Assembly: GCF_030345075.1 (NCBI RefSeq)
Contig: NZ_CP128361.1
Location: 2,480,001 to 2,544,000, forward strand
DNA: 64,000 bases
From: Solwaraspora sp. WMMA2065
Lineage (GTDB): Bacteria; Actinomycetota; Actinomycetes; Mycobacteriales; Micromonosporaceae
Direction: 5' to 3'
Below the pieces are notes generated by a model that was not told where the DNA came from, did no database searches, and saw only the letters and a list, made by a program, of their open reading frames with translations. Positions 325 through 22,003 of the stretch are shown here, in pieces (position 1 is the first letter of the stretch; each line of letters starts with the position of its first letter). The position numbers and the translations under genes are program-made.

Positions 325-930
325 TCAACCGCCGATCGCCGGTCGCTCGGCAACATCGTTGAAGATCTGGTCCTCGAACGCGAGCAGCGTCGAGCCGACA
401 GCCTTGATGAATGCGAAGTTCAGCCCTCCGCCGACCACCGCTCCGACGATCGGCACCGCCTTGCCCAGAGTGCGCGCCGTGAGCCGTTTGAGCAGTTCCT
501 GCGCGACCCGCAGGGCGAGGAACTCGACGCCCTTGATGCCCAGTTCCACCCCGATCGAGAGTCCGACGATCTTCATGAACTCGGGGAAGCTGACCGCGTA
601 CCGCCCGGTCCGGTGGTAGATCACCGCGAGGGTGACCCGGAACTGCTGGGCGATGGTGTTGGCGAGGTCGGCGGGGATGCCCAGGGCCAGCGTCACGCCG
701 CCGCCGAGCCCGGCAGCGGCCCCGGTGCCGGCGGCCAGACCGGCGCAGTAGTTGATGTAGCCGTTGATTCCCATCGAGTCGACTTTCTCCTTGATCTTGA
801 ACCCGTCGAGATTCTTGTGAACAAACTGGAAGGACTTCGCCAACGCACCGGCAGAGTTTGTGTTCACCGTGACCACCTGACCCGCAAATCTTGTCGTCAG
901 ACCATCGGATGCCGACTGATCGATCGGCAC
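325..930 (-). CDS. EcsC-like protein
   Basis: About 201 residues. The middle has a glycine/alanine-rich zipper-like run (YCAGLAAGTGAAAGLGGGV) followed by a Pro-Ala-Asp-Leu motif and a helix that ends at an R-V-T-L-A-V-I-Y stretch. This is the usual layout of the EcsC family (PF12787), proteins of unclear biochemical function found near the membrane in many actinomycetes. A second hydrophobic glycine-rich stretch (VPIVGAVVGGGLNFAFI) lies near residues 160-180. The frame stays open well upstream, but the similarity begins only after codon 930, a GTG, so I place the start there; no strong ribosome site supports it. It stands alone, 92 bases downstream of the sigma-factor group on the same strand. 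The family call is from memory of its pattern, and the exact role is unknown. Confidence 0.5.
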   Translation of the reverse strand: MPIDQSASDGLTTRFAGQVVTVNTNSAGALAKSFQFVHKNLDGFKIKEKVDSMGINGYINYCAGLAAGTGAAAGLGGGVTLALGIPADLANTIAQQFRVTLAVIYHRTGRYAVSFPEFMKIVGLSIGVELGIKGVEFLALRVAQELLKRLTARTLGKAVPIVGAVVGGGLNFAFIKAVGSTLLAFEDQIFNDVAERPAIGG

Positions 931-6092: not shown

Positions 6093-6224
6093 TCAGACGC
6101 TCGGCGGTGGCGGGGTGGTGGTGAGTTCGCCGCACTTGGGGCACCAGCGGCTCTTGACCCGGAACGAGAACAGCCCGGCCAGGTAGCCGAGCACCGCAGC
6201 GCTGGTCAACGCGCAGACATCCAT
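6093..6224 (-). CDS. Small membrane-associated CxxC protein
   Basis: 43 residues. The ATG at 6224 has AGAAGGA seven bases upstream, a strong ribosome site, which is the main reason to accept so short a gene. The first half is a hydrophobic helix (LTSAAVLGYLAGLFSF), then a basic turn, then W-C-P-K-C-G, half of a zinc-knuckle or redox CxxC motif, and a Thr/Pro tail. I do not recognise a named family. It looks like a small membrane-anchored protein exposing a CxxC pair to the cytoplasm. The IS110 element begins about 170 bases upstream. Confidence 0.6.
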   Translation of the reverse strand: MDVCALTSAAVLGYLAGLFSFRVKSRWCPKCGELTTTPPPPSV

Positions 6225-6384: not shown

Positions 6385-6391
6385 CTCGGAT

Positions 6392-7569
6392 GCTCCTATA
6401 GATGTCAAGCTGCTAGTTCAAGATCTTTTGAGGTGATGAGCTGGTAAAGCTCGCGCGCGACGTAGCGCTTGAGGCAGCGGATGATCTCTTTCTTGGACAG
6501 GCCTTCCTTGGTGCGCTGCTCGGCGTAGGCGCGGGTGCGCGGATCCCAGCGCAGCCGCACGAGTACGACGCGGTAGAGGGCGGCGTTGGCCTGTCGGTCG
6601 CCGCCGCGGTTGAGTCGGTGGCGGTTGGTCCTGCCGGACGAGGCGGGGATCGGGGCGACACCGCAGAGCATGGCGAACCCGGCCTCGGAGGTGAGCCGGT
6701 CGTGGTTCTCGCCGGCGGTGACGAGCAGCTGACCGGCGACGTCGGGGCCGACGCCGTGGGCGGCGAGCAGGCCAGGGTTGATGGCGGCGACGAGCGGTTC
6801 GAGTAGTTCGTCGAGTTCGGTGATCTCGGCGGACAGTTGCTGGTGGCGGCGGGCGAGCGAGCGCAGGGCGATCGTGGCTGCGGTGGCCGGAGCTGCGGCG
6901 TCGGCCGGGTCGAGCTGCAGGCTGGCGCAGGTGGCGATCAGCTGCTTGACGGCCAGGCCGCGCAGTTGGGCGCGTAGCTGGTCGGGGGCGGTAACGATCA
7001 GTGCCTTGATCTGGCGTTGGGTGTCGGCGCGCTGGTCGACGGCGCTGCGGCGGGCCACCCGCAGGTTGCGCAGGGCTACGACGCGGCCGTCGCGCTGCTC
7101 GGGGGTGCCGGTACGTTCGCCGGCCAGGGCGGCCTTGGCCGCTTGGATGGCGTCGATCGGGTCGGACTTGCCCTGGAAGCGGCGGGTTTTACGGTCAGGG
7201 CGGTCGACCTCGACCAGCTCAACCTGCTCGTCGCGGAGTCTGCGAGCGAGTCCGGCCCCGTAGGCGCCGGTGCCTTCGACCCCGACCCGCGGCAGACGGC
7301 CGAACCCGCGCATCCAGGTCAGCAGGGCGGTGTAGCCGGCCGTCGTGGCCGGGAACTGCTGGGTGCCAAGAACCCGTCCGACCAGGTCGATCACAGCGGC
7401 CGTGTGAGTGTCCTGGTGGGTATCGACTCCACCGACGACCTCGACCGCGGCGTTATCAGGTGTAATAGAGGGCATCGTCGTCCTGTCGTTCGTGACTGGG
7501 GGCAGGGCGGCACGCACCAGCCGGGCAACGCGGACAAGACAGAGATGGGGCCTCTGGCCAGGCTCCTAT
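6392..7569 (-). mobile_element. IS110-family insertion sequence
   Basis: The octamer GCTCCTAT occurs at 6392-6399 and again at 7562-7569, flanking the transposase gene with 5 bases on one side and 86 on the other. IS110 elements lack long terminal inverted repeats and join at short core sequences, so a short direct repeat of this kind is the expected boundary. The right boundary is less certain. If the element extends to the palindrome ending at 7687, the non-coding leader before the transposase would be about 210 bases, closer to the usual size of the region that encodes the guide (bridge) RNA. Confidence 0.6.
6405..7475 (-). CDS. IS110 family transposase (DEDD recombinase)
   Basis: About 356 residues from the ATG at 7475, where the family similarity starts. 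The N-terminal RuvC-like DEDD domain shows G-G-V-D-T-H-Q-D-T-H (first Asp), V-G-V-E-G-T-G-A-Y-G (Glu) and S-D-P-I-D-A-I-Q-A (two Asp). A coiled stretch links it to the C-terminal transposase_20 domain, which carries the A-S-S-G-R-T serine motif and an N-R-G-G-D-R-Q-A-N-A-A-L-Y helix. Length is normal and the frame unbroken, so the enzyme may be active. It sits beside a zinc-ribbon/GPP34 cassette, whose last gene reads into the element's flank. Confidence 0.93.
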   Translation of the reverse strand: MPSITPDNAAVEVVGGVDTHQDTHTAAVIDLVGRVLGTQQFPATTAGYTALLTWMRGFGRLPRVGVEGTGAYGAGLARRLRDEQVELVEVDRPDRKTRRFQGKSDPIDAIQAAKAALAGERTGTPEQRDGRVVALRNLRVARRSAVDQRADTQRQIKALIVTAPDQLRAQLRGLAVKQLIATCASLQLDPADAAAPATAATIALRSLARRHQQLSAEITELDELLEPLVAAINPGLLAAHGVGPDVAGQLLVTAGENHDRLTSEAGFAMLCGVAPIPASSGRTNRHRLNRGGDRQANAALYRVVLVRLRWDPRTRAYAEQRTKEGLSKKEIIRCLKRYVARELYQLITSKDLELAA

Positions 7570-7573
7570 TAGG

Positions 7574-7957
7574 TCACAACGCCACGTCCGGTGAGTGCAT
7601 GAGCACCTCCCGACCGAGGCCGACAAATCCCGTTAAGGACCCGAAGTCAGTCAGTAGGCGGGTCAGACCTCGACGGGAGGTGCTCATGAACATCATCTCT
7701 GTCAGTAGGGATGCGAACACCTCGCGCCGCCGGTCGGCCGGCAGGCGCGGCCGGGCCAGCTGTGGTTGCCGGGCGGCGGCCCGGTCCCACATCAGGGTTT
7801 CGGCGTGCAGGGCGTCGATCTCGTTGCGGCACGCACCGGTGCACCGGTAGACGCGGGTGGCGGCACGGACGGCCGGGGTCATCGGGGTCCGGCAGTCCGC
7901 GCAGTGGATCAGTGCGGCCAGTGGGTATCCGGCCGGGTCGGGGTAGTCGACCATCAT
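7574..7957 (-). CDS. Zinc-ribbon protein, C-terminus apparently replaced next to IS110
   Basis: 127 residues from the ATG at 7957 (a second ATG follows at once). It starts 13 bases after the GPP34 gene on the same strand. Residues 15-40 hold two Cys pairs (H-C-A-D-C and C-T-G-A-C-R) like the zinc beta-ribbon of large serine recombinases, without any recombinase domain. From about residue 85 the reading runs through the long palindrome at 7599-7687 and up to the edge of the IS110 element, and this tail has no protein-like character. I infer the original C-terminus was lost by insertion or rearrangement. It may still be expressed as a zinc-ribbon protein with a foreign tail. Confidence 0.55.
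   Translation of the reverse strand: MMVDYPDPAGYPLAALIHCADCRTPMTPAVRAATRVYRCTGACRNEIDALHAETLMWDRAAARQPQLARPRLPADRRREVFASLLTEMMFMSTSRRGLTRLLTDFGSLTGFVGLGREVLMHSPDVAL
7599..7687. repeat. 89-base imperfect palindrome beside IS110
   Basis: The 14-base arms (ATGAGCACCTCCCG at 7599-7612 and its exact reverse complement at 7674-7687) continue inward with a one-base bulge into a CGAGG/CCTCG pair. The loop holds a further GACCCG...CGGGTC pairing at about 7639-7663. On the minus strand this would fold as a long stem with an internal hairpin. It could be a structured RNA, an attachment or target site, or a decayed inverted-repeat element. It overlaps the 3' part of the zinc-ribbon reading frame. Confidence 0.75.
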
Positions 7958-7970
7958 CAGCCGCCGCCGG

Positions 7971-8609
7971 TCAGCCACGGTGTGCGGCGACGGTGCGGCC
8001 GAGTGCCGCACGGGTCTGCCGGGCCAGGTCGACGATCGGCGGCCAGCCGTGGTCGACGAGGGTGCGCAGGTCGTCGTAGGCGTGCGGCGGCGCACCGTTG
8101 AGGATGTGCCGGTCGAGGCCGCAGGCCCAGGTCAACGCCGCCAGACCCTGATCGGTGACGTGGAGGCGGCGGCGGGCGCGCAGCGCGGTGGCCAGCCGGA
8201 CGGCGGGCCAGCCGGCGGTGTTCATGTCGGTGGGCACCCACCGTTCGCCGCGACCGACGAGGCGGCGGCGGGTCACTTCCCGGCGTACGTGGCCGGCGCG
8301 GGCCAGTCGGGTGGCGACCTGCCGGACCGCGGTCTCGCTGAGCAGACCGACCCAGGTCTTCACCGGTTGCGGGGTCGGCGCGGCGCTGATCTGGGCGAGG
8401 ACGCCGTGCACCAGGTCGTCGGGCGGGGCGACGGTCGCGCCGACGACGACCAGGCCGCGGCGCACGGCGATCCGCTGCGGGTAGAGCAGTTCGGCCAGCA
8501 GCGCGGCGGCCAGTCCGTGGCTGAGCGCGCGGGGGTGCAGCAACGGTCGGCCGTGCAGCCGGTGGTGGGCCATCCGGAACAGGTCGTCGGCCAGCGGGTA
8601 CGTGGACAT
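7971..8609 (-). CDS. GPP34 (GOLPH3/Vps74-like) domain protein
   Basis: 212 residues from the ATG at 8609, with GAGGAG eight bases upstream. The N-terminal L-A-D-D-L-F-R-M-A-H-H motif, the L-A-A-A-L-L-A-E-L segment and the following basic strand match the GPP34 family (PF05719). Eukaryotic members bind phosphatidylinositol-4-phosphate on Golgi membranes; actinomycete members occur in many copies with unknown roles. Later features include a K-T-W-V-G-L-L-S-E helix and a basic winged segment (H-V-R-R-E-V-T-R-R-R-L-V-G-R-G-E-R-W-V-P-T-D). It lies between two genes for small zinc-ribbon proteins on the same strand, with 13 and 89 bases between, so the three form one transcription unit. Confidence 0.8.
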   Translation of the reverse strand: MSTYPLADDLFRMAHHRLHGRPLLHPRALSHGLAAALLAELLYPQRIAVRRGLVVVGATVAPPDDLVHGVLAQISAAPTPQPVKTWVGLLSETAVRQVATRLARAGHVRREVTRRRLVGRGERWVPTDMNTAGWPAVRLATALRARRRLHVTDQGLAALTWACGLDRHILNGAPPHAYDDLRTLVDHGWPPIVDLARQTRAALGRTVAAHRG

Positions 8610-8698
8610 TCGACAGACTCCTCGGCATCGTGCGCAGACAAGGGCGTGGAACGCCGCCCGCCGCCACGCCCACCTCGGCAGCGACGACGGGCGGCGGC

Positions 8699-9061
8699 TC
8701 AGGTGCGCCAGACGATCAGCAGGTCGTCGGCGTCGGCACCGACGTACACCTGATCGATGGCCTCGCCGATCACTTCGGCGTCGGTGCGCGGCGGCGACAC
8801 AGCGGCCAGGTCGGGGCGGCGGCGGGCGATGGACAGGCCGACGAGCCGCTCGATCCGACCCGCGTCTACCGGGCCCAGCCGGCAACCACACGGCCCCCGG
8901 TACGCCCGACCGCCGTCAGCGGTCCGCAACGGCTGCATCCGCCGCCCACACGCCGCGCACATCAGGACCCCACGTAACGGCCACCGGTCGGACGTATCGC
9001 CGCGCTCGGGTTCCCCGACCGGTGGGCCGTCTTCTGGCAGGTCAGAGCGCAGCGAAGGCAT
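8699..9061 (-). CDS. Zinc-ribbon protein (recombinase-type zinc beta-ribbon)
   Basis: About 120 residues from the ATG at 9061, with GGAG seven bases upstream. Two Cys pairs (M-C-A-A-C-G and G-P-C-G-C-R) form a zinc ribbon, in the manner of the small zinc domains of large serine recombinases. A helical C-terminal part follows (R-I-E-R-L-V-G-L-S-I-A-R-R). It is the first gene of the zinc-ribbon/GPP34/zinc-ribbon cassette. No recombinase catalytic domain is present, so this is either a stand-alone nucleic-acid-binding protein or a domesticated remnant. Confidence 0.65.
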   Translation of the reverse strand: MPSLRSDLPEDGPPVGEPERGDTSDRWPLRGVLMCAACGRRMQPLRTADGGRAYRGPCGCRLGPVDAGRIERLVGLSIARRRPDLAAVSPPRTDAEVIGEAIDQVYVGADADDLLIVWRT

Positions 9062-9336
9062 CGAAGGACTCCTACGGGTGCACGAGGTTGGCCGGCGACG
9101 GAACGGGTGCCACCGGCACAGAGGACTGAAGATCACAGATCGTCGCGATCCAGTAACTCGCTTGGATCGACAGTGGCACGCCGAATCTGGTCCGTCAATT
9201 CTTCCATGGAAAAATCTTGCGACCATCTCGATCGGTCGGCCCTAATGATCAAGATGGATCGCGCTAGCCTGGTTGCGCCGACAGGCATGGATGGTCCAAG
9301 ATGGCGGAATCCACCTCACCCACTGTGGAGGCAGAC

Positions 9337-10194
9337 GTGCCCAAGGTCGTCGGTCCAACCATCCCGCGCTGGCAGCTCGGCGAGGAGCTCACCCGCCTAC
9401 GCCGCGCCGCCAACCTCACCGAGGCAGACGTCGCCGACAAACTCGGCTGCTCCGAGTCGAAGATCAAGAAGGTCGAGGCCGGCTACGTCGGCACCAACCG
9501 CGCCGAGCTCATGGTCATGCTCGACATGTACGGCGTCACCGACGAGGCCGCCCGCAACGACCTGATCGAGCTGCAGAAGCGCGGCAAGGAACGCGGCTGG
9601 TGGTCCAAGTTCGGCATGGTGCCCCAGCAGTTCGCGACCTTCCTCAGCCTGGAGTCCTCGGCGACCAGCATCCGCGTCTTCGAGCCGCTGATGGTCCACG
9701 GACTCCTGCAGACCGAGGACTACACCCGCGCGATCGTCTCGACGCACCTGCCGAACGCGCCCGCCGAGGAAGTCGAACGGCAGGTGCAGATCCGCCGCGC
9801 CCGCCAGGAGCGGCTCTTCGCCGACCCGCCGCAGACCTGGATCATCCTCGACGAGGCGGTCCTGCACCGCCGAGTCGGCGGCACCGACGTGATGCGCGCC
9901 CAGCTGACCCAGATCCTCGACACCGTCAAGGCTGCTCCATGGCTCACCCTCCAGGTCGTCCCGTACAGCCACGGCAGCTACCCCGGCGAGCTCGGCGCGT
10001 TCACGATTTTCGACTTCGAGGAGGACATCCACTCACCCGTCGTCTACGTGGAAGGTCAGGCCGGCGGCCTCTATCTTGAACGTGACGCGGACCTGCGTCG
10101 GTGTAACCTGGCGTACAACCACATCACGGCCGCCGCGCTCAGCCCACCCGAGAGCGCCAAGCTGATCACCGCCCTGACCCGCGCCACGGGTTGA
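9337..10194 (+). CDS. Helix-turn-helix regulator with DUF5753 domain
   Basis: About 285 residues. I chose the GTG at 9337 because GGAGG lies five bases upstream and the product then begins P-K-V-V-G-P-T-I-P-R-W-Q-L-G, the usual family start. An ATG at 9301 lacks a ribosome site. Residues 15-70 form an XRE-type helix-turn-helix (TEADVADKLGCSESKIKKVE). The rest is the DUF5753 domain with its E-P-L-M-V-H-G-L-L-Q-T-E-D-Y core. Such regulators in actinomycetes act with a small DUF397 partner, which is encoded 17 bases downstream. Confidence 0.88.
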   Translation: MPKVVGPTIPRWQLGEELTRLRRAANLTEADVADKLGCSESKIKKVEAGYVGTNRAELMVMLDMYGVTDEAARNDLIELQKRGKERGWWSKFGMVPQQFATFLSLESSATSIRVFEPLMVHGLLQTEDYTRAIVSTHLPNAPAEEVERQVQIRRARQERLFADPPQTWIILDEAVLHRRVGGTDVMRAQLTQILDTVKAAPWLTLQVVPYSHGSYPGELGAFTIFDFEEDIHSPVVYVEGQAGGLYLERDADLRRCNLAYNHITAAALSPPESAKLITALTRATG

Positions 10195-10211
10195 CCGACG
10201 AGGAGCAGCAC

Positions 10212-10421
10212 GTGACCCCCGACCTCGACCTCAGCACTGCCGTCTGGCACAAGAGCAGGAAGTCATCCGCGAACGGTGGCTGCGTCGAGGTCGCCAACCT
10301 GGGTCAGGCGTACGCGCTCCGCGACTCCAAGAACCCGGACGGTCCGGTCCTGATCTTCACCCCCGAGGAGTGGGACTGTTTCCTCGACGGCGCAGAAAAG
10401 GGCGAGTTCCGCCAGCTCTGA
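10212..10421 (+). CDS. DUF397 protein, partner of the DUF5753 regulator
   Basis: 69 residues. The GTG at 10212 has GAGGAG seven bases upstream, which decides the start. A TTG at 10191, overlapping the previous stop, would be an alternative. The product shows the DUF397 signature: W-H-K-S-R-K-S-S-A-N-G-G-C-V-E-V-A, then R-D-S-K-N-P-D-G-P and F-T-P-E-E-W. DUF397 proteins are small acidic partners of DUF5753 regulators. The pair is likely one transcription unit. Confidence 0.9.
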   Translation: MTPDLDLSTAVWHKSRKSSANGGCVEVANLGQAYALRDSKNPDGPVLIFTPEEWDCFLDGAEKGEFRQL

Positions 10422-10890: not shown

Positions 10891-11253
10891 CTACAGCAAC
10901 AGAATCTTCTCAAAGAACGAAGGATCTCGATACGTTCCCTCATCCTCATGCCACACGAGAGGACCAGAGAGCACATAGTTGGCGAGTTCACCTCCAACAA
11001 TGAACAACTCAGTCCCTCCAGGAAATTCGCGGCCAGCTTGCGATTCAATTTCTGACCGCTCGCCTCCATTAGCCCTGCCAATCGTCAGGCTCTCGAAAAC
11101 TGTATCGAGCTGCATGCGAGCCACCTGCTGAAAAAGGACGTCGATCCTGGTTGAATTATCCTCGTCGCGCGAACTACGCAGAAGCAGAACCTTATGACTC
11201 ACGGAGTAGCGCCACAGCTTGAATTGGCGAGAAGACTCGAACAAAACTTCCAT
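10891..11253 (-). CDS. Candidate immunity protein for the Rhs toxin
   Basis: 120 residues from the ATG at 11253, with TAGGGA upstream, only eight bases after the Rhs stop. The sequence is mixed alpha/beta with a Y-S-V-S-H-K-V-L-L-L-R-S-S strand, an I-D-V-L-F-Q-Q-V helix and an E-L-F-I-V-G-G-E strand. I do not recognise a named family. Polymorphic toxin genes are normally followed at once by a gene protecting the producer, and this is the only gene in that position. The DNA is clearly AT-richer than the Rhs body, as is the toxin end, consistent with the two having been exchanged together. A TTG at 11280 could extend it by nine residues. Confidence 0.7.
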   Translation of the reverse strand: MEVLFESSRQFKLWRYSVSHKVLLLRSSRDEDNSTRIDVLFQQVARMQLDTVFESLTIGRANGGERSEIESQAGREFPGGTELFIVGGELANYVLSGPLVWHEDEGTYRDPSFFEKILLL

Positions 11254-11260
11254 TAGATCC

Positions 11261-11650
11261 CTACCAATTGGGTTTCGCAAGGTCCACTCGCGCGCCGGCG
11301 TGATAAAACTTGATGCTACTCCAAGTCCTGACTTCTCGTCGAACAGCTAGACCAAGCTGAGCCATTTCCCAGTCAGTAGCGCCAAAATTGCCACCTCTGC
11401 CGGCATTATAGGCATTCATGAATCTTTCTGAATGCGTAGCGCCATCCATACCGTCAAGTGCGACATGGATCGTCGTATCCTCATCCCTGATAGCATCCTT
11501 CACAGCCATCTGCCAGCCAGCCATGCCACTTTCGGGATCAACCGGCTTCAAGCCCGGATCATTGAAGGTTCTTACGTTACTCAGACCTTCGCCCCTCAGC
11601 TGGCTCGCCAACTTCTCACCATGTTCGTTAATGCCGAGAACTGCGTTGTT
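11261..11650 (-). other. C-terminal toxin module of the Rhs protein
   Basis: The last 129 codons, directly after the Hint His-Asn-Cys end. The module begins N-A-V-L-G-I-N-E-H-G-E-K-L-A and ends near K-F-Y-H-A-G-A-R-V-D-L. Its middle carries D-G-M-D-G and a T-D-W-E-M-A-Q-L-G helix. The pattern recalls a numbered polymorphic-toxin family (possibly type 27) whose activity I cannot state. A+T content rises sharply compared with the rest of the gene, as expected for a tip exchanged by recombination. Confidence 0.65.
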
Positions 11651-14600
11651 GCAGTTGTGTACAAGAACCGGCGTGTCGCCGGCAAGTACATGATACGTGT
11701 GGGTGTGGGCGACTGTCAGGTCGCGCATCTCCCGCTCGTCGCGGCGTGTCTGGACCGACACCACCGTGACCTCGCCGCGACCCGCCACCCGCAGCTTGGC
11801 ACCCGGCTTGAGGTCGCCGGCGTTGACCCATGCCTGCCGGTTGTCGTCCCAGAAGGGGTGGTTCGGTGTCGTCTCCACCACGGTGGAGGTGCCGTCGCTG
11901 GTGCGGACCCGTACGTCGGTGAGTTCGCGGTCGGTGTTGCGGTGCAGTTGGGTGACGGGTTTCGGCAGCGATGTGCCGGACACCGGGTCGGTCGCTATGA
12001 CCTGGTCGCCGACGTTGATGTCGGCGATGGGGCGGGTGGTGCCGTCGGCCATCAGCACCCGGGTGTCGGGGGCGAAGCTGTGCGTACGACAACCCGGACC
12101 CGACCCGCCACGACCACTTGAGGCGGACGGACCGGCGGTGCTGCCGCCGCGTCCCGGTGGAGCCCGCGCGGGGCCTGCACCGCCGCCCTTGCGGCCGATC
12201 AGGTTGAGTCCCGGCACCGACCCGAGGGCGGCGGCTCTGAGGTCGACCCGTCCGGTGGTGGCGGCCTGGGAGATGACATCGGAGATGCCGTTCTCCACCG
12301 CGTCACTGGCCAACCGGGCGGTAACCCCCGAGCCGGCCTTCGCGGCGATCGCCGTACCGACCTTCGCCGCGATCGCCCCACCGGCACCACCGGCCAGGCC
12401 CATGATCGCCCCCGTACCGAGCGAACCGAGCGCGTCACCGACGGAGTGGATGTCGCCCTGCGCCACATCCTTCGCCAGGTTGATCAACGCACCCGCACCC
12501 ACCATGCACGCCACCGCGCCCGCACCGGCGGTCACCGCCGTACACGCCAACCCGGCCACGACCGCGCCGGCGATCGCGGCGACCTCCAGGATGGTGTCCT
12601 TGTGCTCCACCACCCACTTCTTGGTGGCGTTCGCCGCATCCTTCACCACGCTGACGGTCTTCTTCACCACCCGGGTCGCCTTCGCCGCGACCTTCTTCGC
12701 CGCCTGCTTCACCTGGGCGACCTTCTGTTTCACCTTCTGTTTCGCCTTGGCGACCTTCTTCGCCACGTACTTCTTCGCCTGGTTGACCTTCTTCTTGACT
12801 GCCTTCTTCGCCTTGGCGTACGTCTTCTTGACCTTGTTCTTGACCTTGGCGGCCTTGGCCTTGACCTGGTTGACCTTCTTCTTCGCGGCGGTGGTCACCT
12901 TCTTCGCCGCGGTCTTCGTGACCTTCTTCGCCTTCTGGTAGGCGGCACTGCCGTAGCTCGACACGCTGGACACCGCACGACGGGTCGCACTCGACACCTT
13001 CGACGTCGCCTTCGACGCCAGCTTCGCCGCCGCCTTCAACGGGTTGCCCCAGTGCCCGGTCGGGTCGATCGTCGTCAACGGCGTGCCGTCGCCGTACTGG
13101 TAACGGTTCGCCGCGATCGAGTCCGGCACCGGGCTGTTCGCGGCCGAGTCGCGGGTGTCGAACTGGCCGGTGTCGGTGTTGTACCAGCGGGCGTGCATGT
13201 TCACCCGCGACGTGGCCGCGTCGGTCCATTCCGACTGGTAGCCCAGACTCCCGACCATCCCGGTACTGGCGACCACCTTGCCCAACGGGTCGTACGTCGT
13301 CGCCCCGGCCAGGGTGGTGCCGGTCGTCGTGAACTGACCCACCACGTCGGTGTGCAGATCCGTCCACACCAGCCGCTGCGTCCCACCCGCCGTCCCGGCC
13401 ACCACCTCACCCGACGGCCCCCGCACATACGTCGCCGTGTCGTCCGCCGCCAGGTCGTTACCGACCCCGGTGTACGCGAACCCCGGCCGCACCGCCCGAC
13501 CCAACCCGTCATAGTCGTAGGTACGCGCTGGCCCACCACCGCTGACCTGCTGGCTGTGCACCTGGCCGAACGCGTCGGCGGTCGTGGCGACCGTGCCGGC
13601 GGCGGCGAGGGTGCCACGGGCGGTGTACGTGTACGCCGTCCCGTCGGCGGTCAGCAGCCGGTTCCGCTGGTCGTAGCTGAACAGCTTGGCGCCGTTCTGC
13701 ACCCGGTTACCGGCCTTGTCGTACGCGTACACCACGGTCGCCGAACCGTTGTTCCACGACGTCAACCGGTCGGCCAGGTCGTAGCTGTAGGTGTTGGTGA
13801 CGGCGGCACCACCGAACCCGGTGGTCGTCTTCGAGGTCAGGTTGTCGTTTTCGTCCCAGCCGTAGCCGATCGCCGCGATCTGCGTACCACCGGAGGTTTT
13901 CAACGTGTCGCCGGTGAGCCGGTGCAGGTCGTCGAAGGTGAACTCCCGACGGTTGCCGGTGCCGCCGTAGGTGATCTGCGAGACCTGGGACAGGTTGTTG
14001 TACGCGTACCCCATCGTGACGCCGGCGGTCGGGTTGGTCAGGCTGGCCAGCCGCCCGGCGGTGTCGTAGCCGTAGCTGGTGGTGCCGGCCGCGTCCTGCC
14101 GGCTGGCCAGCTGCCCGCTGCCGTTGTACGTGAACGTCGAGTTGCCGACCGGGCCGCTGATCGACAGCGGCAGGTCCCGGTCGTCGTAGCTGATCGTGTT
14201 GGTGCCACCGCCGCCGGAGAACTCGGTCATCCGGCCGCCGAGGTCGTAGTCGAAGACCCGGTCGACGGTCGTCGCCTCCGCGCCGGAGCCTTCCTGACGC
14301 AGCAGCTGGCCCATCTCGTCGTACTCGCTGCTGATCGTCACCCCGCCGGGCAGGAACTGGGTCACCGGTCGGCCGGCGGCGTCGTAGGCGACGCTGAACG
14401 TCCGGTCGGCCGCCGCCGGGTGCGCGGAGGTCGACGGCTCGATCTGCTCCTCCGGCAGATGCCACGGGTTGTACCCGGTCCAGAAGGCGTTGCCCCGCCC
14501 GTCGGTGAACCGGGTCCGGTTGCCGGACAGGTCGTAGCCGAACGTGGTGACGATGTCGTCGGAGCCGGAGATCGGCTGGGTGTGCTTCGTGAGCGCACCG

Positions 14601-17600
14601 GTGGCGTCGTACTCGAAGGTGGCGGTGGTGCCGCGCCCGTCGGTCGCGGCGGTCACGTTGCCGGCCCGGTCGTAGCTGGTGGTCTCCCGCACCAGCTGCA
14701 CACCGGACGCGTCGTACGAGGCGGTGGCCAGGACCCGGCCGGTCAGGTCGTAGTGGGTGTTGCTGTAGCTGTCGTCGGGCAGCGTGGTCCGGACCGCCCG
14801 GCCTGCACCGTCGTAGGTGTACCCGGTGGTGTTGCCGGCCCCGTCGGTGACGGTCAGCGGCTGCCCGACGGCGTTGTACGTCACGGCGGTGGTCACCCCG
14901 GTCGGGTCGGTCACCTGGGCGAGCCGGCCCCCCGGGCCGTAGCTGTACGTGGTGGTGTGGTTGGTGCCGGTCTGCCGGACCACGTCGGTGCTGGTGACCT
15001 GCCGGCCCAGGTAGTCGTAGGTGGAGCTGGCCACCGCGCCGGTCGGGTCGGTGGTGGTCAGCAGGTCCCCGGCGAGGTTGTACGTGTAGCGGGTGGTGCC
15101 GTCGTTCGGGGTGACCACCTTGGTCAGCCGGCCCAGCTGGTCGTAGGTGTACTCGGTGGTCTCGTCGAACGGGTCGGTGACCGAGGCCACCTGCCCCGAC
15201 GCGTCGTAGCTGTAGGTGATCTCCGGGGTGATCGGGGTGGCCGACCCCGGCGGGGTGTACGCCGGCAACTGCTCACCGGCCACCCGGCCGTCGGCGTCGT
15301 AGCTGGTCACCGACCAGTTGCCGGACGGGTCGAGGGTGTCGGTGACCTCGTCGAACGTGTTGTAGCCGACCCAGGAGGCGGCGTTGGCCAGCACCGGCGA
15401 CGGGCTGTCGACCGACTGGGCGTACGCCGCCGGGGCGGTGGTCTTGACCGCGTTGCCGCCCTCGTCGTAGGTGATGTAGGTGGTGTCGCCGTTGGCGTCG
15501 GTGGCCGCGACGACCTCGCCATTGTCGTCGACCTGGTAGCTCTCCCGCACCACGTGGGCGTCGGCTGCCGGTGCGGTGCCGCCGTGCACGGCGGCGACCT
15601 CGGTCGGGCTGAGCGCCTTCTGGTACGCCTGCACGTCGCTGATCTCACCGGGCCAGAAGTTGCCCCGGGATCCGTTCCACATGCCGGCACCGACGACGAA
15701 CGTGCCGCGGGCGGTGAACGGCTTCGCGCCGCTCTGGCTGCCTTCCAGGGCACCGTCGACGTAGATGCTGATGGTGCCGGTGGCCGCGTCGTACGTCCCG
15801 GCCAGGTGGGTCCAGGTGTTCAGCGCCGGGGTGCTGGTGGACACGACGGTGACCGGTTGCGTCACGTCCGGCGCGTCGAGGGTGCTGGTCCGCAGCCGCC
15901 AGCGGTCGGCGTCCTTGTCGTAGGCCAGGTCGAACGGGGTCTGCTGCTCGCCGTTGGCGGCGACCGCCTTACGCAGGTCACCCTTGTCGGTCAGGTACAC
16001 CCAGGCGGCCACGGTGAAGCTGCGTCCGGTGTCGATGACCGGGCCGTCGCTTTCGATGACCGAGCTGATGCCGTTGAAGCCGGCCGCTCCGCCGTTGCCG
16101 GTGGTCCACCACATGCCGGGGACGGCCGTGCCGGGGCTGTTGCCGGCGGAGTCGGCGGCGGCGACCCCGGCGGTCTCGTCGAGCCGCCAGCGCAGCACCG
16201 GGGTGGGGTCGGCGATCGACGGGTACTCGGTCTCGGCGAGCACCTCGCCGGCCGGGTCGTACAGGGTTTCGCTGAAGCCGACCGTTGCGCCGCCGGCGTC
16301 GGCGTGCCGTTCGGTGACCACGTTGTCGTCGGCGTCGTAGCCGTAGTGGGTGGTGCGCTTCAGCCCGTCCGGGTCGACCGTGGTCGACGTCTCCCGGCCG
16401 GCGGCGTCATAGGTGTACGTGACGACGGTCGCGCCGTCGTCGGTGACCTCCCGGACCAGGTTGCCGGCCGCGTCGTACTCGTTCGACTCGACGACGAACG
16501 ACGAACTGCCGTCGGTGCGGGTGACGTCGGCGATCAGCCCGTTGTCGGTGTACGTGTACTCGGTGGTCCAGCCCATCGGGTCGGTCTCGGCGGCCAGCCG
16601 CCTGGCCGGGTCGTACGACTTCGCCGAGATCAGCACGTCGGTGGCGGGCTGCGGGTCGTCCGGGTCGCCGGTGAAGCCGACCACCGTCGTGGTCAGCAGG
16701 TTGCCTTCGGCGTCGTACGTGTTGGTGGTGACGCCGCCGTCGTGGTCGGTCTCGGTGACCACCCGGCCGTACGCGTCGTAGCCGAGGGTGGTGACCGTGC
16801 CGCCCGGGGTGGTCGAGGTCGCCTGCTGGCCGTACTGGTTGTAGGTGTGCTGCTCGGTGCGCGACGCGTCGCCGCCGGTCAGGTCGGCGACGGTCTCGGC
16901 GAGCACGTTGCCGTCGTCGTCGTAGGTGTAGGTGGTGCGGGCGGTGTGCACCGCGCCGGTGACCCGGTTGGTGACCGCCGGCCCGGTCTCGGTCGCCACC
17001 CGCCCGGCCGCGTCGTACGTGTAGGTGGTGGTCAGCCCGGCCGGGAAGGTGTCGCTGAGCTCCGTCTCGGTCAGGGTGCGACCCAACCCGTCGTACGTGA
17101 ACCGGTCGATCTTGCCGCTCGGGTCGGTGACCTGGGCGACGTCGCCGTTGGCGTAGTACTCGACGGTCTGCACCGCGCCGCCCGGGGTGGTGACCCGGGT
17201 CGGCAGGCCGGCCGGGGCGATCCCACCGCCGTACGCGGCGGTGCTGGTGCCGTCGGTGTAGCCGGTGGTGGTGACCCGGCCGAGCGGGTCGGTGATGGTG
17301 GTCTGGTTGCCGCTGGTGTCGTAGCCGTACGACGTACGGTAGGTGTCGTCGGTCTCCGACGCCGACCGCCCGTCGCGGACGGTGAGCAGCAGGTCGTTGC
17401 GGGCGTCCGGGGTCAGCGTCGTGGTCGTCGCGTCCGGGTAGTAGGTGTAGTAGACCGACGAGCACTTGTCGGCTGACTGGTCCTGGCAGCTGACGCTCTG
17501 CTTGGTGTTGCCGCGCACGTCCTGGAAGGTCTGCGTCCACACCCCGCGCGGGTCGTAGACCAGGCTGTTGTAGCCGCCGACGTCGTAGCCGAACTTGGTG

Positions 17601-20600
17601 ACGTTGCCGAGCGCGTCGGTCTGCGCCACCGGCCGGCCGCCGTTGACCAGGTCGTAGCTGTAGGAGACGGTCTCGCCGGTGGGGCCGGTGACGGCGACCT
17701 GGGACACCGGCATCGGGATCGCGGTGGCCACCCCGGAGATCATCGTGACGGCGACCGGGGCGGTCTGCTGCGACGCCGCGTAGTGGGCGGTGACCTGCGT
17801 CTGGCTGAGCTCGCTGGTGAAGAACGCCGCTTCGGCGATCTGCCCCGGAAAGTAGCTGATGTCCCCGGAGGTCGACGGCCAGGTGCTCGGGGTGAAGCCG
17901 GTACCGAGGTACGCGTAGGCGGCCGGGGTGGTCTGGCCGCCGTAGTTGAGCGTGCCGACGAGGGTCCCGTCGAGGTAGAGCCGCTGGGTGCTGGCGGACA
18001 GGGTCATCGCGACGTGGTGCCAGTTGCCGTCACGGACACTGCCGGTGGTGGTGATCGGCGGATGGGTGTTGCCGCACCAGCACCACTTGCCGCGCAGTTT
18101 GCCGTCGGCGCCGACGTACAGCGCGGGAATCCGCTCGTTGGCGACGAGACCGCTGGTGATCGAGTTGGTCTGGAAGCTGTAGAGAACACCGCTGGAGGTG
18201 CCGCCGGTGGGCATCCTGAACCACATCGACACCGACGCCGGATCGGTGCCGCCGATGCGTTCCGGTGGCAACTCGACGTACGAGCTGGTGCCGTTGAAGG
18301 AGGCGGCGGTGGCACCGGCGAACGGGCCGTCCGCGCCGAGGGTCACCTGGTTGTAGGTGGCGACGCCACCGTCGACCTGGTTGACCGCCTCGGTCACCGC
18401 CACCTCGCCGAGACGCCAGTAGTCGGCCGGTTTGGCGCCGAGCACCGACGCGGCGTACACGTCGGCGCTGCCGGCGACGGTCGGGGTGCCCATCGTCCAG
18501 ACGCCGCCGTTCTCGTCGGTGACGGTGGCGACCCGGCCGGTGGTGCCCTGGTAGGTGACCTGCGCGGTGACGCCGCCGGTCGGCCGGGTCACCGTCGACA
18601 GCACCGGATGGGTACGGGTGCCGGCGGCGTGCAGGGCGGCGACGGTGGCCGCCGGCAACGCCTGGTTGTGGAACGCCACGTCGGAGATCGAGCCGGAGAA
18701 GTAGCTGGCCGCAGCCGGGCTGACCCCGCTGTTCTGGTGGCCGGGCCAGTTGCCGCCGATGAAGCCGGCGCCGACGTGGATGTTGTCGGCGTTGTCGGGC
18801 AGCTGCATGATGATGCCGCCGAGGCTGCCCTGGGCGACGCCGTCGAGGTAGAGGGTCTGCGTGCTGCCGGCCCCGGCGAGCGCCACGTGGTGCCAGTCGC
18901 CGTCGTTGACCGGCGCGGCGGTGGTGATCGCGGCGGCGGCGTTGCCCTGCCAGAACTGGCCGCGCAGCTTGCCGTCGCTGCCGACGTACAGCGCCGGCAC
19001 GTAGGTGGTGGGTGTGGTGCCGGCGGTGACCGGCGCGGCGCTGTAGCCGAACAGCACGCCGTTGACGGCGGTGGTGCGGAACCACATGCTGACCGTCTGG
19101 TACTGGCCGTCGGCGACCAGGTCGCCCGGCAGCTGCAGGTACGACGAGGTGCCGTCGAAGGCGGCGACGGTGGCGGTCGAGCCGGGGCGGGCAGCCGGCT
19201 GGCCGAGGGTCACTGCGGCGTACCGGGCGTTGTCGATGCCGGCGTTGGTGAGCACCGCGCTGCGGGCCACCGTTGCCGCAGACGGCTCCGACAGCGGCCA
19301 GTACGAGTACGGCCCGGTGTCCAGCACCGTGTTGGCGTACGGGGAGATGGTGGTGTGGCTGTAACCGTGGCAGGCGCTCGGGCCGGTCGGCGGGCAGACC
19401 CGCGTCAGGGTGTCGTCCGGGCCGTACCCGTACTGCCAGGTTTCGGCGCTGGCCGGGATGCCCGGATCGGCCGGGTCGGTGGCGACGGTGGTGACGTGCG
19501 GGTGGGCCGACCCGGTCGGGGTGTCCCAGGTCAGCCACAGCGAGCGGCCGGCGGCGCTGGTGATCCGGCTGGCCAGCCCGCCCGTGTAGTCGACGGTCAG
19601 GGTGCGGCCGTTGGCGTCGGTGACCGCGGTCAGCCGGAACACGCCGCCGCCGGCGGACTGCCCGAACGTGTAGACGGAGGCGTCCTTGTCGGTCAGCGTA
19701 TAGCCGGTCAGGGTGGTGCCGCTGCGGGTCTCGGCGAAGGTGGCGAACCGGCCGGACGGTGCGGTGAACGTGCCGTCGGCGTTGCGGCCGAACGCGATGT
19801 CCTGCCCGGTCGGATAGGTGACCAGCACCGACTGGACGCTGCCGGTGGCGTCCGGCACAGCGGTGGCCCGCACGTCGAGCAGGCTCGACCAGCCGGTGCC
19901 GAACGCCGACGTACGCCGGGTGTCCAGGCTGTTGTAGCTGCGGGTGATGCTCAGTGACGGGCCGACGGTGGCGACCGTCGCGTCGGTCGCCGAGGTGGTG
20001 TAGTTGCCGATGCCCGGGTCGTATCCTTTGCCGGCGTTCTGGCTGAGGTTGCCGGCCAGGGTGGGTTGCGGCACGCCGGTGGTGAACGCGTACGCCGGGT
20101 ATACGGCGCTGTAGCTCACCTGGTCGTGCACCCGGACCGTGTAGAGGTAGGTCTTGTTCCAGGCCAGGGTGCCGCTCGGTACCCGCCACGACGGGCTCGT
20201 CACCCAGCCGGAGTTGGCCACCACGGTGGTGCCGGTGCTGTCGTAGACGACGTATTGGTGGCGCAGCCCCTGGTTGGGCCAGGCGTCCGGGTCCTTGGAC
20301 CGGACCAGCAGTTCCGGGGTCAGCGTCGGAGTCACCGCGTTGTTCGCCGGGTAGCGGACGTTGACCTGCGGCGCGACGTTGTCGGTGTAGGTCAGCTCGA
20401 CGTACGGCTTGTAGGCGCCGCCGCCGTAGTTGGCCGAGGTGAACCGCTTCCAGCCGTTGGAATCGGTCTCCGAGGCGGTCAGCGCCAGTCCGTGGTTGGT
20501 CCCGCCGGTGGACCAGTCGTTGAAGGTGGCGACGTTCAGCGGCACGGTCACCCACTTGCCGACACTGCGGTCGCCGGAGGTGTTCTGGCAGGACGGATAG

Positions 20601-22003
20601 TTGTCGGTGACGGTCAGCGAGCCGATCGAGCTGGAGATCGCCGGGCCGGGGTGGCTGGCGGTGGACAGGTTCGCCACCGTCCACGCCTGGTTGACCCGGT
20701 GCACGGAGAAGGCCCGATGCTCGGAGCAGCTGTAGGCCCAGGTCAGGTAAAGCTTCAGTTTGGCGGCGGTGATCCGCTTGCCGATGAACCCGTCGTCGTC
20801 GAACTCGTCGAAGTGGATGAACGAGCGGGCCTTGACGCCGCCGCCGTCGTAGGTGCCGACCGGCAGGTTGTCGCCGTTGTGGTTGGTGGTCGTGGTGTCG
20901 CTGTCGACGTACACGTCGCCGGTGGTGCCGGTGGTGGCGGTCGGGTCCACCCGGACGGGGTAGACCCGGGCCGGGTCGTCCAGCCAGGCCCGGTCGGCGG
21001 TGACCTTCAGCGCCTGGCCGCCGCCGGGCTGGTCGACCAACTCGAACTCGACGTCGGGTGACTGGGCGGGTGCGCCGGACTGCGGGTGGACGTTGCTGTC
21101 CTCCATGAACCCGCGCGGGAACCAGACCCGGGCGGTGCCGTCGGCGTCGACCAGCTCCACCCAGCCTTCGGCGGTGAGCCGGGGCGTCAGCCCGGTCAGG
21201 TCGAGCGGGAACGTCCAGGTCGACGGGGCCTGCGGTGAATGCAGGATCAACGTCTCCTTGAGCCCGGCGTCGAAGGTGATCAACTCCAGGTCGGTGTGCG
21301 GCAGGATTTCCCGGTAGGTGGCGGTGTTGCCGTCGGTCTCGGCGGCGACGTCGGCGGCACCGTCGAGTTCGTAGGCGACCCGCTTTCCGTCGGGCAGTGC
21401 CAGCACCCCGAGGTCGGTGTCGCCGGTGCTGCCGGCGACGCTCACCTGCAGGCTGTTGGCCCGCATGTGCAGCCGCCCGTCGCGGCGCTCGACCAGGTCG
21501 GTGTCGATCGGGCGCCAGCTACCGTCGGCGGCCCGGTAGTTGACCGGTCGGCTGTAGGTGCGCACCGTCGTGGAACCGTCGGCGTTGTCGTAGACGTCGG
21601 TGCGGGCGGTGGCCTCGTCGGCGTCCCGGCGGCTGGTCGCCGCGTCGAATCCGGGCTCGGCGACACCGGTCGGGGTGGTCGGTGCCGTCGGGTCGTGCGG
21701 CTGGTACGGCGGCAGTGTGTCGGCTGCCTGGCTGACCCGGCGGCCCGCGCCGCCGGCCGCGGTGGTCTCCCCGGCCGGCACGTGGTGCTCGCCGGTGAAC
21801 GGTGCCGGGCCGGCCATCACCGGCGCGCCGAGGGCGGCTGCCGCTGCCGACCACAACGGACGGTTGACCGCCCACGACCACAGCCACGACGTCGGCCAGG
21901 AGTCGGGCGGTACTGCACCGGCCGGCACCACCACGGTCAGTCCGAAGAGCAGCAGCGTCAGGGTCGCGATCCGGCGGGACGCACGACTGATGGCACGGCG
22001 CAT
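11261..22003 (-). CDS. Giant secreted Rhs/YD-repeat polymorphic toxin with LamG and Hint domains
   Basis: 3580 residues from the ATG at 22003. A signal peptide covers 1-31 (RIATLTLLLFGLTVVVPAGA). Then in order: a DNRLRE-like region at about 355-540; a DUF6531-like N-P-x-x-G segment at about 660-712; three LamG/concanavalin-like domains at about 918-1128, 1215-1405 and 1942-2142. YD repeats lie between and after them up to about 2920, followed by the Rhs core end (A-R-W-Y-N-T-D-T-G-Q-F-D-T-R-D and Y-G-D-G-T-P) at about 2940-2990. A Lys/Ala-rich segment occupies about 3015-3135 and a glycine-rich hydrophobic segment about 3135-3225. A Hint domain spans 3305-3451 and ends L-V-H-N-C, and a 129-residue toxin domain closes the protein. 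The YD shell should encapsulate the toxin, and Hint should release it. An immunity candidate follows at once. Confidence 0.93.
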   Translation of the reverse strand: MRRAISRASRRIATLTLLLFGLTVVVPAGAVPPDSWPTSWLWSWAVNRPLWSAAAAALGAPVMAGPAPFTGEHHVPAGETTAAGGAGRRVSQAADTLPPYQPHDPTAPTTPTGVAEPGFDAATSRRDADEATARTDVYDNADGSTTVRTYSRPVNYRAADGSWRPIDTDLVERRDGRLHMRANSLQVSVAGSTGDTDLGVLALPDGKRVAYELDGAADVAAETDGNTATYREILPHTDLELITFDAGLKETLILHSPQAPSTWTFPLDLTGLTPRLTAEGWVELVDADGTARVWFPRGFMEDSNVHPQSGAPAQSPDVEFELVDQPGGGQALKVTADRAWLDDPARVYPVRVDPTATTGTTGDVYVDSDTTTTNHNGDNLPVGTYDGGGVKARSFIHFDEFDDDGFIGKRITAAKLKLYLTWAYSCSEHRAFSVHRVNQAWTVANLSTASHPGPAISSSIGSLTVTDNYPSCQNTSGDRSVGKWVTVPLNVATFNDWSTGGTNHGLALTASETDSNGWKRFTSANYGGGAYKPYVELTYTDNVAPQVNVRYPANNAVTPTLTPELLVRSKDPDAWPNQGLRHQYVVYDSTGTTVVANSGWVTSPSWRVPSGTLAWNKTYLYTVRVHDQVSYSAVYPAYAFTTGVPQPTLAGNLSQNAGKGYDPGIGNYTTSATDATVATVGPSLSITRSYNSLDTRRTSAFGTGWSSLLDVRATAVPDATGSVQSVLVTYPTGQDIAFGRNADGTFTAPSGRFATFAETRSGTTLTGYTLTDKDASVYTFGQSAGGGVFRLTAVTDANGRTLTVDYTGGLASRITSAAGRSLWLTWDTPTGSAHPHVTTVATDPADPGIPASAETWQYGYGPDDTLTRVCPPTGPSACHGYSHTTISPYANTVLDTGPYSYWPLSEPSAATVARSAVLTNAGIDNARYAAVTLGQPAARPGSTATVAAFDGTSSYLQLPGDLVADGQYQTVSMWFRTTAVNGVLFGYSAAPVTAGTTPTTYVPALYVGSDGKLRGQFWQGNAAAAITTAAPVNDGDWHHVALAGAGSTQTLYLDGVAQGSLGGIIMQLPDNADNIHVGAGFIGGNWPGHQNSGVSPAAASYFSGSISDVAFHNQALPAATVAALHAAGTRTHPVLSTVTRPTGGVTAQVTYQGTTGRVATVTDENGGVWTMGTPTVAGSADVYAASVLGAKPADYWRLGEVAVTEAVNQVDGGVATYNQVTLGADGPFAGATAASFNGTSSYVELPPERIGGTDPASVSMWFRMPTGGTSSGVLYSFQTNSITSGLVANERIPALYVGADGKLRGKWCWCGNTHPPITTTGSVRDGNWHHVAMTLSASTQRLYLDGTLVGTLNYGGQTTPAAYAYLGTGFTPSTWPSTSGDISYFPGQIAEAAFFTSELSQTQVTAHYAASQQTAPVAVTMISGVATAIPMPVSQVAVTGPTGETVSYSYDLVNGGRPVAQTDALGNVTKFGYDVGGYNSLVYDPRGVWTQTFQDVRGNTKQSVSCQDQSADKCSSVYYTYYPDATTTTLTPDARNDLLLTVRDGRSASETDDTYRTSYGYDTSGNQTTITDPLGRVTTTGYTDGTSTAAYGGGIAPAGLPTRVTTPGGAVQTVEYYANGDVAQVTDPSGKIDRFTYDGLGRTLTETELSDTFPAGLTTTYTYDAAGRVATETGPAVTNRVTGAVHTARTTYTYDDDGNVLAETVADLTGGDASRTEQHTYNQYGQQATSTTPGGTVTTLGYDAYGRVVTETDHDGGVTTNTYDAEGNLLTTTVVGFTGDPDDPQPATDVLISAKSYDPARRLAAETDPMGWTTEYTYTDNGLIADVTRTDGSSSFVVESNEYDAAGNLVREVTDDGATVVTYTYDAAGRETSTTVDPDGLKRTTHYGYDADDNVVTERHADAGGATVGFSETLYDPAGEVLAETEYPSIADPTPVLRWRLDETAGVAAADSAGNSPGTAVPGMWWTTGNGGAAGFNGISSVIESDGPVIDTGRSFTVAAWVYLTDKGDLRKAVAANGEQQTPFDLAYDKDADRWRLRTSTLDAPDVTQPVTVVSTSTPALNTWTHLAGTYDAATGTISIYVDGALEGSQSGAKPFTARGTFVVGAGMWNGSRGNFWPGEISDVQAYQKALSPTEVAAVHGGTAPAADAHVVRESYQVDDNGEVVAATDANGDTTYITYDEGGNAVKTTAPAAYAQSVDSPSPVLANAASWVGYNTFDEVTDTLDPSGNWSVTSYDADGRVAGEQLPAYTPPGSATPITPEITYSYDASGQVASVTDPFDETTEYTYDQLGRLTKVVTPNDGTTRYTYNLAGDLLTTTDPTGAVASSTYDYLGRQVTSTDVVRQTGTNHTTTYSYGPGGRLAQVTDPTGVTTAVTYNAVGQPLTVTDGAGNTTGYTYDGAGRAVRTTLPDDSYSNTHYDLTGRVLATASYDASGVQLVRETTSYDRAGNVTAATDGRGTTATFEYDATGALTKHTQPISGSDDIVTTFGYDLSGNRTRFTDGRGNAFWTGYNPWHLPEEQIEPSTSAHPAAADRTFSVAYDAAGRPVTQFLPGGVTISSEYDEMGQLLRQEGSGAEATTVDRVFDYDLGGRMTEFSGGGGTNTISYDDRDLPLSISGPVGNSTFTYNGSGQLASRQDAAGTTSYGYDTAGRLASLTNPTAGVTMGYAYNNLSQVSQITYGGTGNRREFTFDDLHRLTGDTLKTSGGTQIAAIGYGWDENDNLTSKTTTGFGGAAVTNTYSYDLADRLTSWNNGSATVVYAYDKAGNRVQNGAKLFSYDQRNRLLTADGTAYTYTARGTLAAAGTVATTADAFGQVHSQQVSGGGPARTYDYDGLGRAVRPGFAYTGVGNDLAADDTATYVRGPSGEVVAGTAGGTQRLVWTDLHTDVVGQFTTTGTTLAGATTYDPLGKVVASTGMVGSLGYQSEWTDAATSRVNMHARWYNTDTGQFDTRDSAANSPVPDSIAANRYQYGDGTPLTTIDPTGHWGNPLKAAAKLASKATSKVSSATRRAVSSVSSYGSAAYQKAKKVTKTAAKKVTTAAKKKVNQVKAKAAKVKNKVKKTYAKAKKAVKKKVNQAKKYVAKKVAKAKQKVKQKVAQVKQAAKKVAAKATRVVKKTVSVVKDAANATKKWVVEHKDTILEVAAIAGAVVAGLACTAVTAGAGAVACMVGAGALINLAKDVAQGDIHSVGDALGSLGTGAIMGLAGGAGGAIAAKVGTAIAAKAGSGVTARLASDAVENGISDVISQAATTGRVDLRAAALGSVPGLNLIGRKGGGAGPARAPPGRGGSTAGPSASSGRGGSGPGCRTHSFAPDTRVLMADGTTRPIADINVGDQVIATDPVSGTSLPKPVTQLHRNTDRELTDVRVRTSDGTSTVVETTPNHPFWDDNRQAWVNAGDLKPGAKLRVAGRGEVTVVSVQTRRDEREMRDLTVAHTHTYHVLAGDTPVLVHNCNNAVLGINEHGEKLASQLRGEGLSNVRTFNDPGLKPVDPESGMAGWQMAVKDAIRDEDTTIHVALDGMDGATHSERFMNAYNAGRGGNFGATDWEMAQLGLAVRREVRTWSSIKFYHAGARVDLAKPNW

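What the first reader, a model, noticed from the sequence alone, without database searches (positions are those of the whole stretch)
7574..9061. Zinc-ribbon / GPP34 / zinc-ribbon cassette beside an IS110 element
Two small zinc-ribbon proteins of the recombinase type, without any recombinase, flank a GPP34 lipid-binding-type protein in one transcription unit. The downstream copy seems truncated where the mobile element begins. The trio has no assigned function, and a DUF5753/DUF397 regulator pair starts divergently next to it. This is a candidate uncharacterised accessory system.
Basis: partly seen in the sequence, partly recalled or inferred. Interest (0 to 1): 0.6.

Follow-up and report, generated by a model that had tools for sequence, protein, structure and literature searches.

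The report
Zinc-ribbon plus bacterial GOLPH3 gene module
A small zinc-ribbon protein built like the DNA-binding end of a phage integrase, a bacterial relative of the Golgi protein GOLPH3 and a switch-like regulator pair keep turning up side by side in one family of actinobacteria, so the arrangement is a real, undescribed gene module rather than an accident, although its second zinc-ribbon gene is a broken extra.

Summary
The trio is real at the stated coordinates. Of 40 loci picked only because they encode this zinc ribbon (ZnR; 20 genomes, 10 genera of the window's family), 27 have a GPP34 gene within 4 kb on the same strand, 23 have an XRE-DUF5753 regulator divergent within 1.3 kb (DUF397 follows in nearly all), and 38 have at least one. 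ZnR linkage needs at least 6 gains or losses on a GPP34 tree and at least 3 on an XRE tree, so it recurs rather than being inherited once. ZnR folds like the C-terminal DNA-binding domain of large serine recombinases, but the genome has no such recombinase. GPP34 folds like GOLPH3 but lacks its PI4P-pocket residues. In other genera GPP34 heads an operon with an APC permease and an acetyltransferase, which this locus lacks. The downstream ZnR is dispensable: intact, frameshifted or absent in relatives, and here its last third is replaced by read-through into an IS110 element. There is no sign of defence, plasmid or phage linkage. Most likely: an XRE/DUF397-controlled ZnR-GPP34 membrane-adaptor module. 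The linkage is shown; the mechanism is inferred.

The parts
8699..9061 (-). ZnR-A: stand-alone recombinase-type zinc ribbon protein, 120 aa (CxxC...CGC)
   Evidence: AlphaFold2 model pLDDT 80.5 matches large serine recombinase C-terminal domains (Bxb1 Z 11.0, Listeria integrase Z 10.7, PhiC31 Z 8.8); dN/dS 0.2-0.5
7971..8609 (-). GPP34/GOLPH3-like protein, 212 aa
   Evidence: PF05719 105 bits; model pLDDT 90.9; GOLPH3 Z 20.3, Vps74 Z 18.6; dN/dS 0.06-0.24
7574..7957 (-). ZnR-C: second zinc ribbon gene; native to about residue 81-87 (down to about 7694-7709), then read-through into the IS110 left end
   Evidence: intact in L088, L090, L091, frameshifted in L087, absent in L089 and L092
9301..10194 (+). 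XRE regulator with DUF5753, 297 aa, divergent from ZnR-A
   Evidence: DUF5753 188.6 bits, HTH_31 47.1 bits; divergent to ZnR or GPP34 in many loci
10191..10421 (+). DUF397 small protein, 76 aa, overlapping the XRE stop
   Evidence: 81.1 bits
9062..9300 (.). Shared divergent promoter region, strongly conserved in congeners, with inverted repeat GATCG-TCG-CGATC and TTCCATGGAA
   Evidence: Alignment
6388..7709 (-). IS110 insertion (transposase 6405-7517) in the 3' part of ZnR-C; not part of the module
   Evidence: second copy at G000:C1:3334289-3335605

Best explanation
The locus is one variant of a recurring chromosomal module of this actinobacterial family. An XRE-DUF5753 regulator with its DUF397 partner is transcribed divergently from, and probably controls through the shared promoter, a stand-alone zinc-ribbon protein (ZnR) and a GOLPH3-like GPP34 protein. 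ZnR is most likely a DNA-binding domain descended from or shared with large serine recombinases, acting as a small accessory regulator; it cannot catalyse recombination. GPP34 most likely sits on the inner face of the membrane as an adaptor that holds or tunes a membrane client, in the wider operon the linked APC permease. At this locus the permease and acetyltransferase genes are missing, so GPP34 must act on a client encoded elsewhere. The second zinc ribbon is a dispensable extra copy, here broken by IS110. Shown: gene content, recurrence, predicted folds, purifying selection, absence of a recombinase. Inferred: regulation of the divergent operon, DNA binding by ZnR, membrane and client binding by GPP34.
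For: Recurrence: 38 of 40 ZnR loci have GPP34 and/or divergent XRE-DUF5753; 3 of 4 ZnR loci in the own genome lie within 2.5 kb of one of only 8 GPP34 genes. Repeated association: at least 6 changes on the GPP34 tree and at least 3 on the XRE tree. GPP34 is followed by APC permease and GNAT in 15 of 15 further loci fetched by GPP34 similarity (L145-L159), 7 of them with divergent XRE/DUF397. GPP34 followed by XRE on the same strand in 8 of 8 genomes of another order, matching the published gene order SCO4440-4441-4442 (PMC12402492, PMC6262351). ZnR fold equals the LSR C-terminal DNA-binding domain, and no LSR exists in this genome. GPP34 fold equals GOLPH3/Vps74. The divergent promoter region is conserved.
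Against: ZnR also occurs next to XRE/DUF397 without GPP34 (L101, L105-L113), and GPP34-APC-GNAT occurs without ZnR (L145-L159), so they are two exchangeable modules rather than one obligate system. The permease client is missing from the window locus. PI4P-pocket positions are not conserved. No expression, binding or localisation data exist. ZnR-A is frameshifted in one congener (L089), so it is not essential there. Genomes carry about 50 XRE/DUF397 pairs, so some adjacency is expected by chance (about 1-2% per locus, far below what is seen).
Confidence: 0.5

Rival explanations
1. ZnR with XRE/DUF397 is a conflict or toxin-antitoxin type unit (DUF397 or ZnR as effector) that happens to be parked next to housekeeping GPP34 operons.
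For: XRE-DUF397 pairs were proposed as type II toxin-antitoxin systems (cited in PMC10364602). ZnR-XRE-DUF397 occurs without GPP34.
Against: Overexpressed DUF397 proteins of S. coelicolor were not toxic (PMC10364602). No PADLOC match for the trio. No plasmid or phage homologue of ZnR-A, no plasmid homologue of GPP34. Synteny is stable within the genus. The GPP34 association needs at least 6 changes on the tree.
Confidence: 0.15
2. ZnR proteins are decaying remnants of serine recombinases from old mobile elements, without function.
For: Recombinase-type zinc ribbon fold. The ZnR-C copy is decaying. One ZnR-A is frameshifted in L089.
Against: Uniform compact length with a conserved C-terminal strand across 10 genera. 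dN/dS below 1. Non-random partners. No LSR in two of the genomes. Sequence similarity to resident LSRs of related genomes is weak, 12.8 bits at best.
Confidence: 0.12
3. ZnR is not a DNA-binding regulator but a protein-binding partner of GPP34 or of the permease (zinc ribbon used as an interaction module).
For: Zinc ribbons often bind proteins (general knowledge). ZnR sits directly upstream of GPP34 or of the permease.
Against: The fold match is to the DNA-contacting domain of LSRs. ZnR also occurs with XRE alone, without GPP34 or permease (L101, L105-L113).
Confidence: 0.2

Closest known systems
S. coelicolor SCO4440 (GOLPH3-like) - SCO4441/SCO4442 (Scr1/Scr2, XRE-DUF397)
   Same: GPP34 gene next to an XRE-DUF5753 gene; seen in 8 of 8 genomes of another order. 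Published effects: antibiotic activation by the pair (PMC6262351) and peptidoglycan/wall-deficient cells for SCO4439/4440 (PMC12402492).
   Different: All on one strand there, divergent here. No zinc ribbon found there. The window XRE is only the eighth best match to the Scr1-like protein in its genome, so it is not its ortholog.
Eukaryotic GOLPH3 / Vps74
   Same: Same fold (Z 20.3 and 18.6) including a long beta-hairpin.
   Different: About 17% identity, shorter, PI4P-pocket residues replaced, no Golgi or PI4P expected in bacteria.
Large serine recombinases (Bxb1, PhiC31, Listeria integrase), C-terminal zinc-ribbon domain
   Same: Zinc ribbon plus following helices and last strands superpose (Z 8-11).
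   Different: No catalytic or PF07508 domain, no coiled-coil arm in the model, free-standing about 95-120 aa protein.
XRE-DUF397 (WhiJ/BldB-like) regulator pairs
   Same: HTH plus DUF5753 followed directly by DUF397.
   Different: Specific divergent pairing with ZnR and/or GPP34, which I did not find described in the papers searched.

Membership tests
GPP34 (Pfam PF05719) | Profile match above curated cut-off | tested here: met
   105 bits against 29.1
GPP34 (Pfam PF05719) | GOLPH3/Vps74 fold | tested here: met
   Z 20.3, 200 residues, 2.6 A to GOLPH3
Eukaryotic-type GOLPH3 (PI4P effector) | PI4P pocket residues W81, R90, R171, R174 (numbers from memory) | tested here: not met
   Profile alignment to human GOLPH3 puts His at W81, Ala at R90, Val at R174, and R171 in an unaligned insert
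Eukaryotic-type GOLPH3 (PI4P effector) | Membrane and cargo-tail binding | not testable with these tools
   Needs biochemistry
Large serine recombinase | Recombinase (PF07508) domain in the protein or elsewhere in the genome | tested here: not met
   ZnR-A is 120 aa; no PF07508 match in G000
Large serine recombinase | Zinc-ribbon C-terminal domain fold | tested here: met
   PF13408 matched by 17 of 31 members at E below 0.01, below cut-off for the window protein
XRE-DUF397 regulator pair | HTH + DUF5753 followed by DUF397 | tested here: met
Scr1/Scr2 (SCO4441/4442) orthologs | Reciprocal best match | tested here: not met
   Forward match yes, reverse match ranks eighth
Known anti-phage defence system | PADLOC model match of the trio | tested here: not met
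   No match for ZnR-A, GPP34, ZnR-C
IS110 element | DEDD (PF01548) plus Transposase_20 and defined ends | tested here: met
   a bridge RNA was not tested

The most novel reading that the evidence does not exclude
A serine-recombinase DNA-binding domain has been domesticated as a small site-specific regulator that, with XRE/DUF397, controls bacterial GOLPH3-like adaptors and their permease clients: a bacterial membrane-adaptor system with its own dedicated regulatory cassette.
Probability: 0.3. Interest if true: 0.65.

Novelty: new variant of a known kind. Interest (0 to 1): 0.5.

Why it matters
Bacterial GOLPH3 homologues and DUF397 proteins are widespread in actinomycetes with little known function. 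A recurring cassette that ties a free-standing recombinase DNA-binding domain, an XRE/DUF397 pair, GPP34 and, in other genera, a permease plus acetyltransferase gives concrete partners to test: what GPP34 holds in bacteria, and what DUF5753/DUF397 regulators act on.

Tried and rejected
Close-relative scan of genome contigs with ZnR-A found nothing. The P0004 scan gave only Actinopolymorpha alba, with no GPP34 or ZnR nearby. A phylum-wide ZnR search found almost nothing outside the family (only 12 candidates scored per genome, so sensitivity is limited). ZnR had no sequence match in the PDB. Orthology with Scr1 was rejected by the reciprocal search. The best relatives of the window XRE in other families of the class lie beside neither ZnR nor GPP34 in the loci fetched. 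A GOLPH3-like cargo motif in the permease N-terminus (conserved LAxxRLG before TM1) was considered, but similar sequence is common in APC permeases (own knowledge), so it was not used. A shared operator: ACGGACWGTCCGT recurs in GPP34-XRE divergent regions of other genera but is absent in the window's group. No Rfam match and no sigma-70-like promoter.

Full report
OBSERVATION. The three minus-strand genes exist as described: ZnR-A 8699-9061, GPP34 7971-8609 and ZnR-C 7574-7957, with gaps of 89 and 13 bp. The XRE-DUF5753 and DUF397 genes start divergently 239 bp away. The genome is one 6.74 Mb contig.

IS110 AND THE THIRD GENE. Comparison with congeneric loci gives the empty site: left homology ends at about 6389 and right homology resumes at about 7694. 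A second copy of the element in the same genome is 99.6% identical over 6388-7709; the 8-bp stretch TCAGYAGG occurs both in the element end and in the native gene, so the right border is ambiguous there. ZnR-C is therefore native to residue 81-87 and carries about 40 residues read from the element. Intact versions exist in L088, L090 and L091; L087 has a frameshift; L089 and L092 lack the gene. The third gene is thus a dispensable, decaying extra, and the trio is not the functional unit.

RECURRENCE. ZnR searches over 201 genomes of the family and GPP34 searches gave loci that I fetched and annotated with profile HMMs and a simple gene caller. In 40 loci picked by ZnR (all strong hits but one, plus one weaker own-genome locus), 23 have a divergent XRE-DUF5753 within 1.3 kb, 27 a GPP34 within 4 kb on the same strand (19 directly next), and 38 one or both. 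The remaining strong hit (G114 C2) also has a GPP34 close by. In the own genome 3 of 4 ZnR loci lie near one of only 8 GPP34 genes; chance is about 1% per locus. These loci are related by descent, so raw counts overstate independence. The trees address this: ZnR linkage needs at least 6 changes on the GPP34 tree and at least 3 on the XRE tree by well-supported branches.

WIDER MODULE. In further GPP34 loci chosen by similarity alone from other genomes (L145-L159), GPP34 is followed by an APC permease (PF13520) and a GNAT in 15 of 15, with divergent XRE/DUF397 in 7. In other loci (L118, L120, L122, L124) the order is ZnR - a different APC permease - acetamidase/formamidase-like protein - GPP34. 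The window GPP34 groups with L102 and L103, which have permease and GNAT but no ZnR. The window locus has therefore most simply lost the permease and GNAT and gained ZnR. In eight genomes of another order GPP34 is followed by an XRE gene on the same strand (in five of them this is that genome's only XRE passing E 1e-60 to P0004), as in the published SCO4440-4442 order (PMC12402492, PMC6262351, PMC10364602). The reciprocal test shows this is not orthology.

PROTEINS. ZnR: AlphaFold2 model pLDDT 80.5, matching only large serine recombinase C-terminal domains above background (Foldseek best E 8.7e-4; VIA Z 11.0 to 8.3, next unrelated 2.4). 17 of 31 members match PF13408. No PF07508 recombinase exists in this genome or in G060, so ZnR is not a helper of a resident recombinase here. 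It has no phage or plasmid homologues and is almost confined to this family (limited sensitivity). GPP34: pLDDT 90.9, GOLPH3 Z 20.3. By profile alignment the PI4P-pocket positions are not conserved. GOLPH3 clients are recognised by short basic membrane-proximal tails (PMC8421267), which makes a linked membrane protein a natural client hypothesis, untested.

SELECTION AND PROMOTER. dN/dS is below 1 for ZnR-A, GPP34 and XRE, and the divergent region is strongly conserved with two palindromes. The candidate operator found in other genera is absent here.

VERDICT. The linkage is well supported; the mechanism (regulator plus membrane adaptor) is inference from folds and neighbours.

Noticed in passing
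L110, L118, L122, L124, L145, L146, L150, L152, L155-L157 divergent regions: A palindrome close to ACGGACWGTCCGT lies in XRE-ZnR/GPP34 divergent regions, in several loci about 200 bp upstream of the XRE domain; candidate XRE operator, absent in the window.
   Followed up: partly
window 11261-22003 and 10891-11280: Large RHS-type protein ending in PT-HINT and Ntox27 domains, with a 129-aa ORF just downstream that could be its immunity protein; related RHS genes sit beside the same locus in several congeners.
   Followed up: partly
window 6096-6224: Minus-strand small ORF (MDVCALTSAAVLGYLAGLFSFRVKSRWCPKCGELTTTPPPPSV) with a CxxC, also present at the same place in L089 and L092; no Pfam match.
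   Followed up: partly
window 9062-9300: Intergenic region unusually well conserved in congeners, with GATCGTCGCGATC and TTCCATGGAA palindromes.
   Followed up: partly
L115, L116: ZnR - GPP34 fragment - ZnR fragment arrangements, looking like deletions or recombination between neighbouring ZnR cassettes.
   Followed up: no
L118, L120, L122, L124: Variant order XRE/DUF397 | ZnR - APC permease - acetamidase/formamidase-like - GPP34.
   Followed up: partly
window 325-876: EcsC-like protein with PADLOC candidate-defence matches PDC-S29/S30.
   Followed up: no
window 7518-7709 (minus strand): The IS110 upstream end folds into a very stable stem (-82 kcal/mol over 183 nt) and would be the place of a bridge RNA; not tested further.
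   Followed up: no
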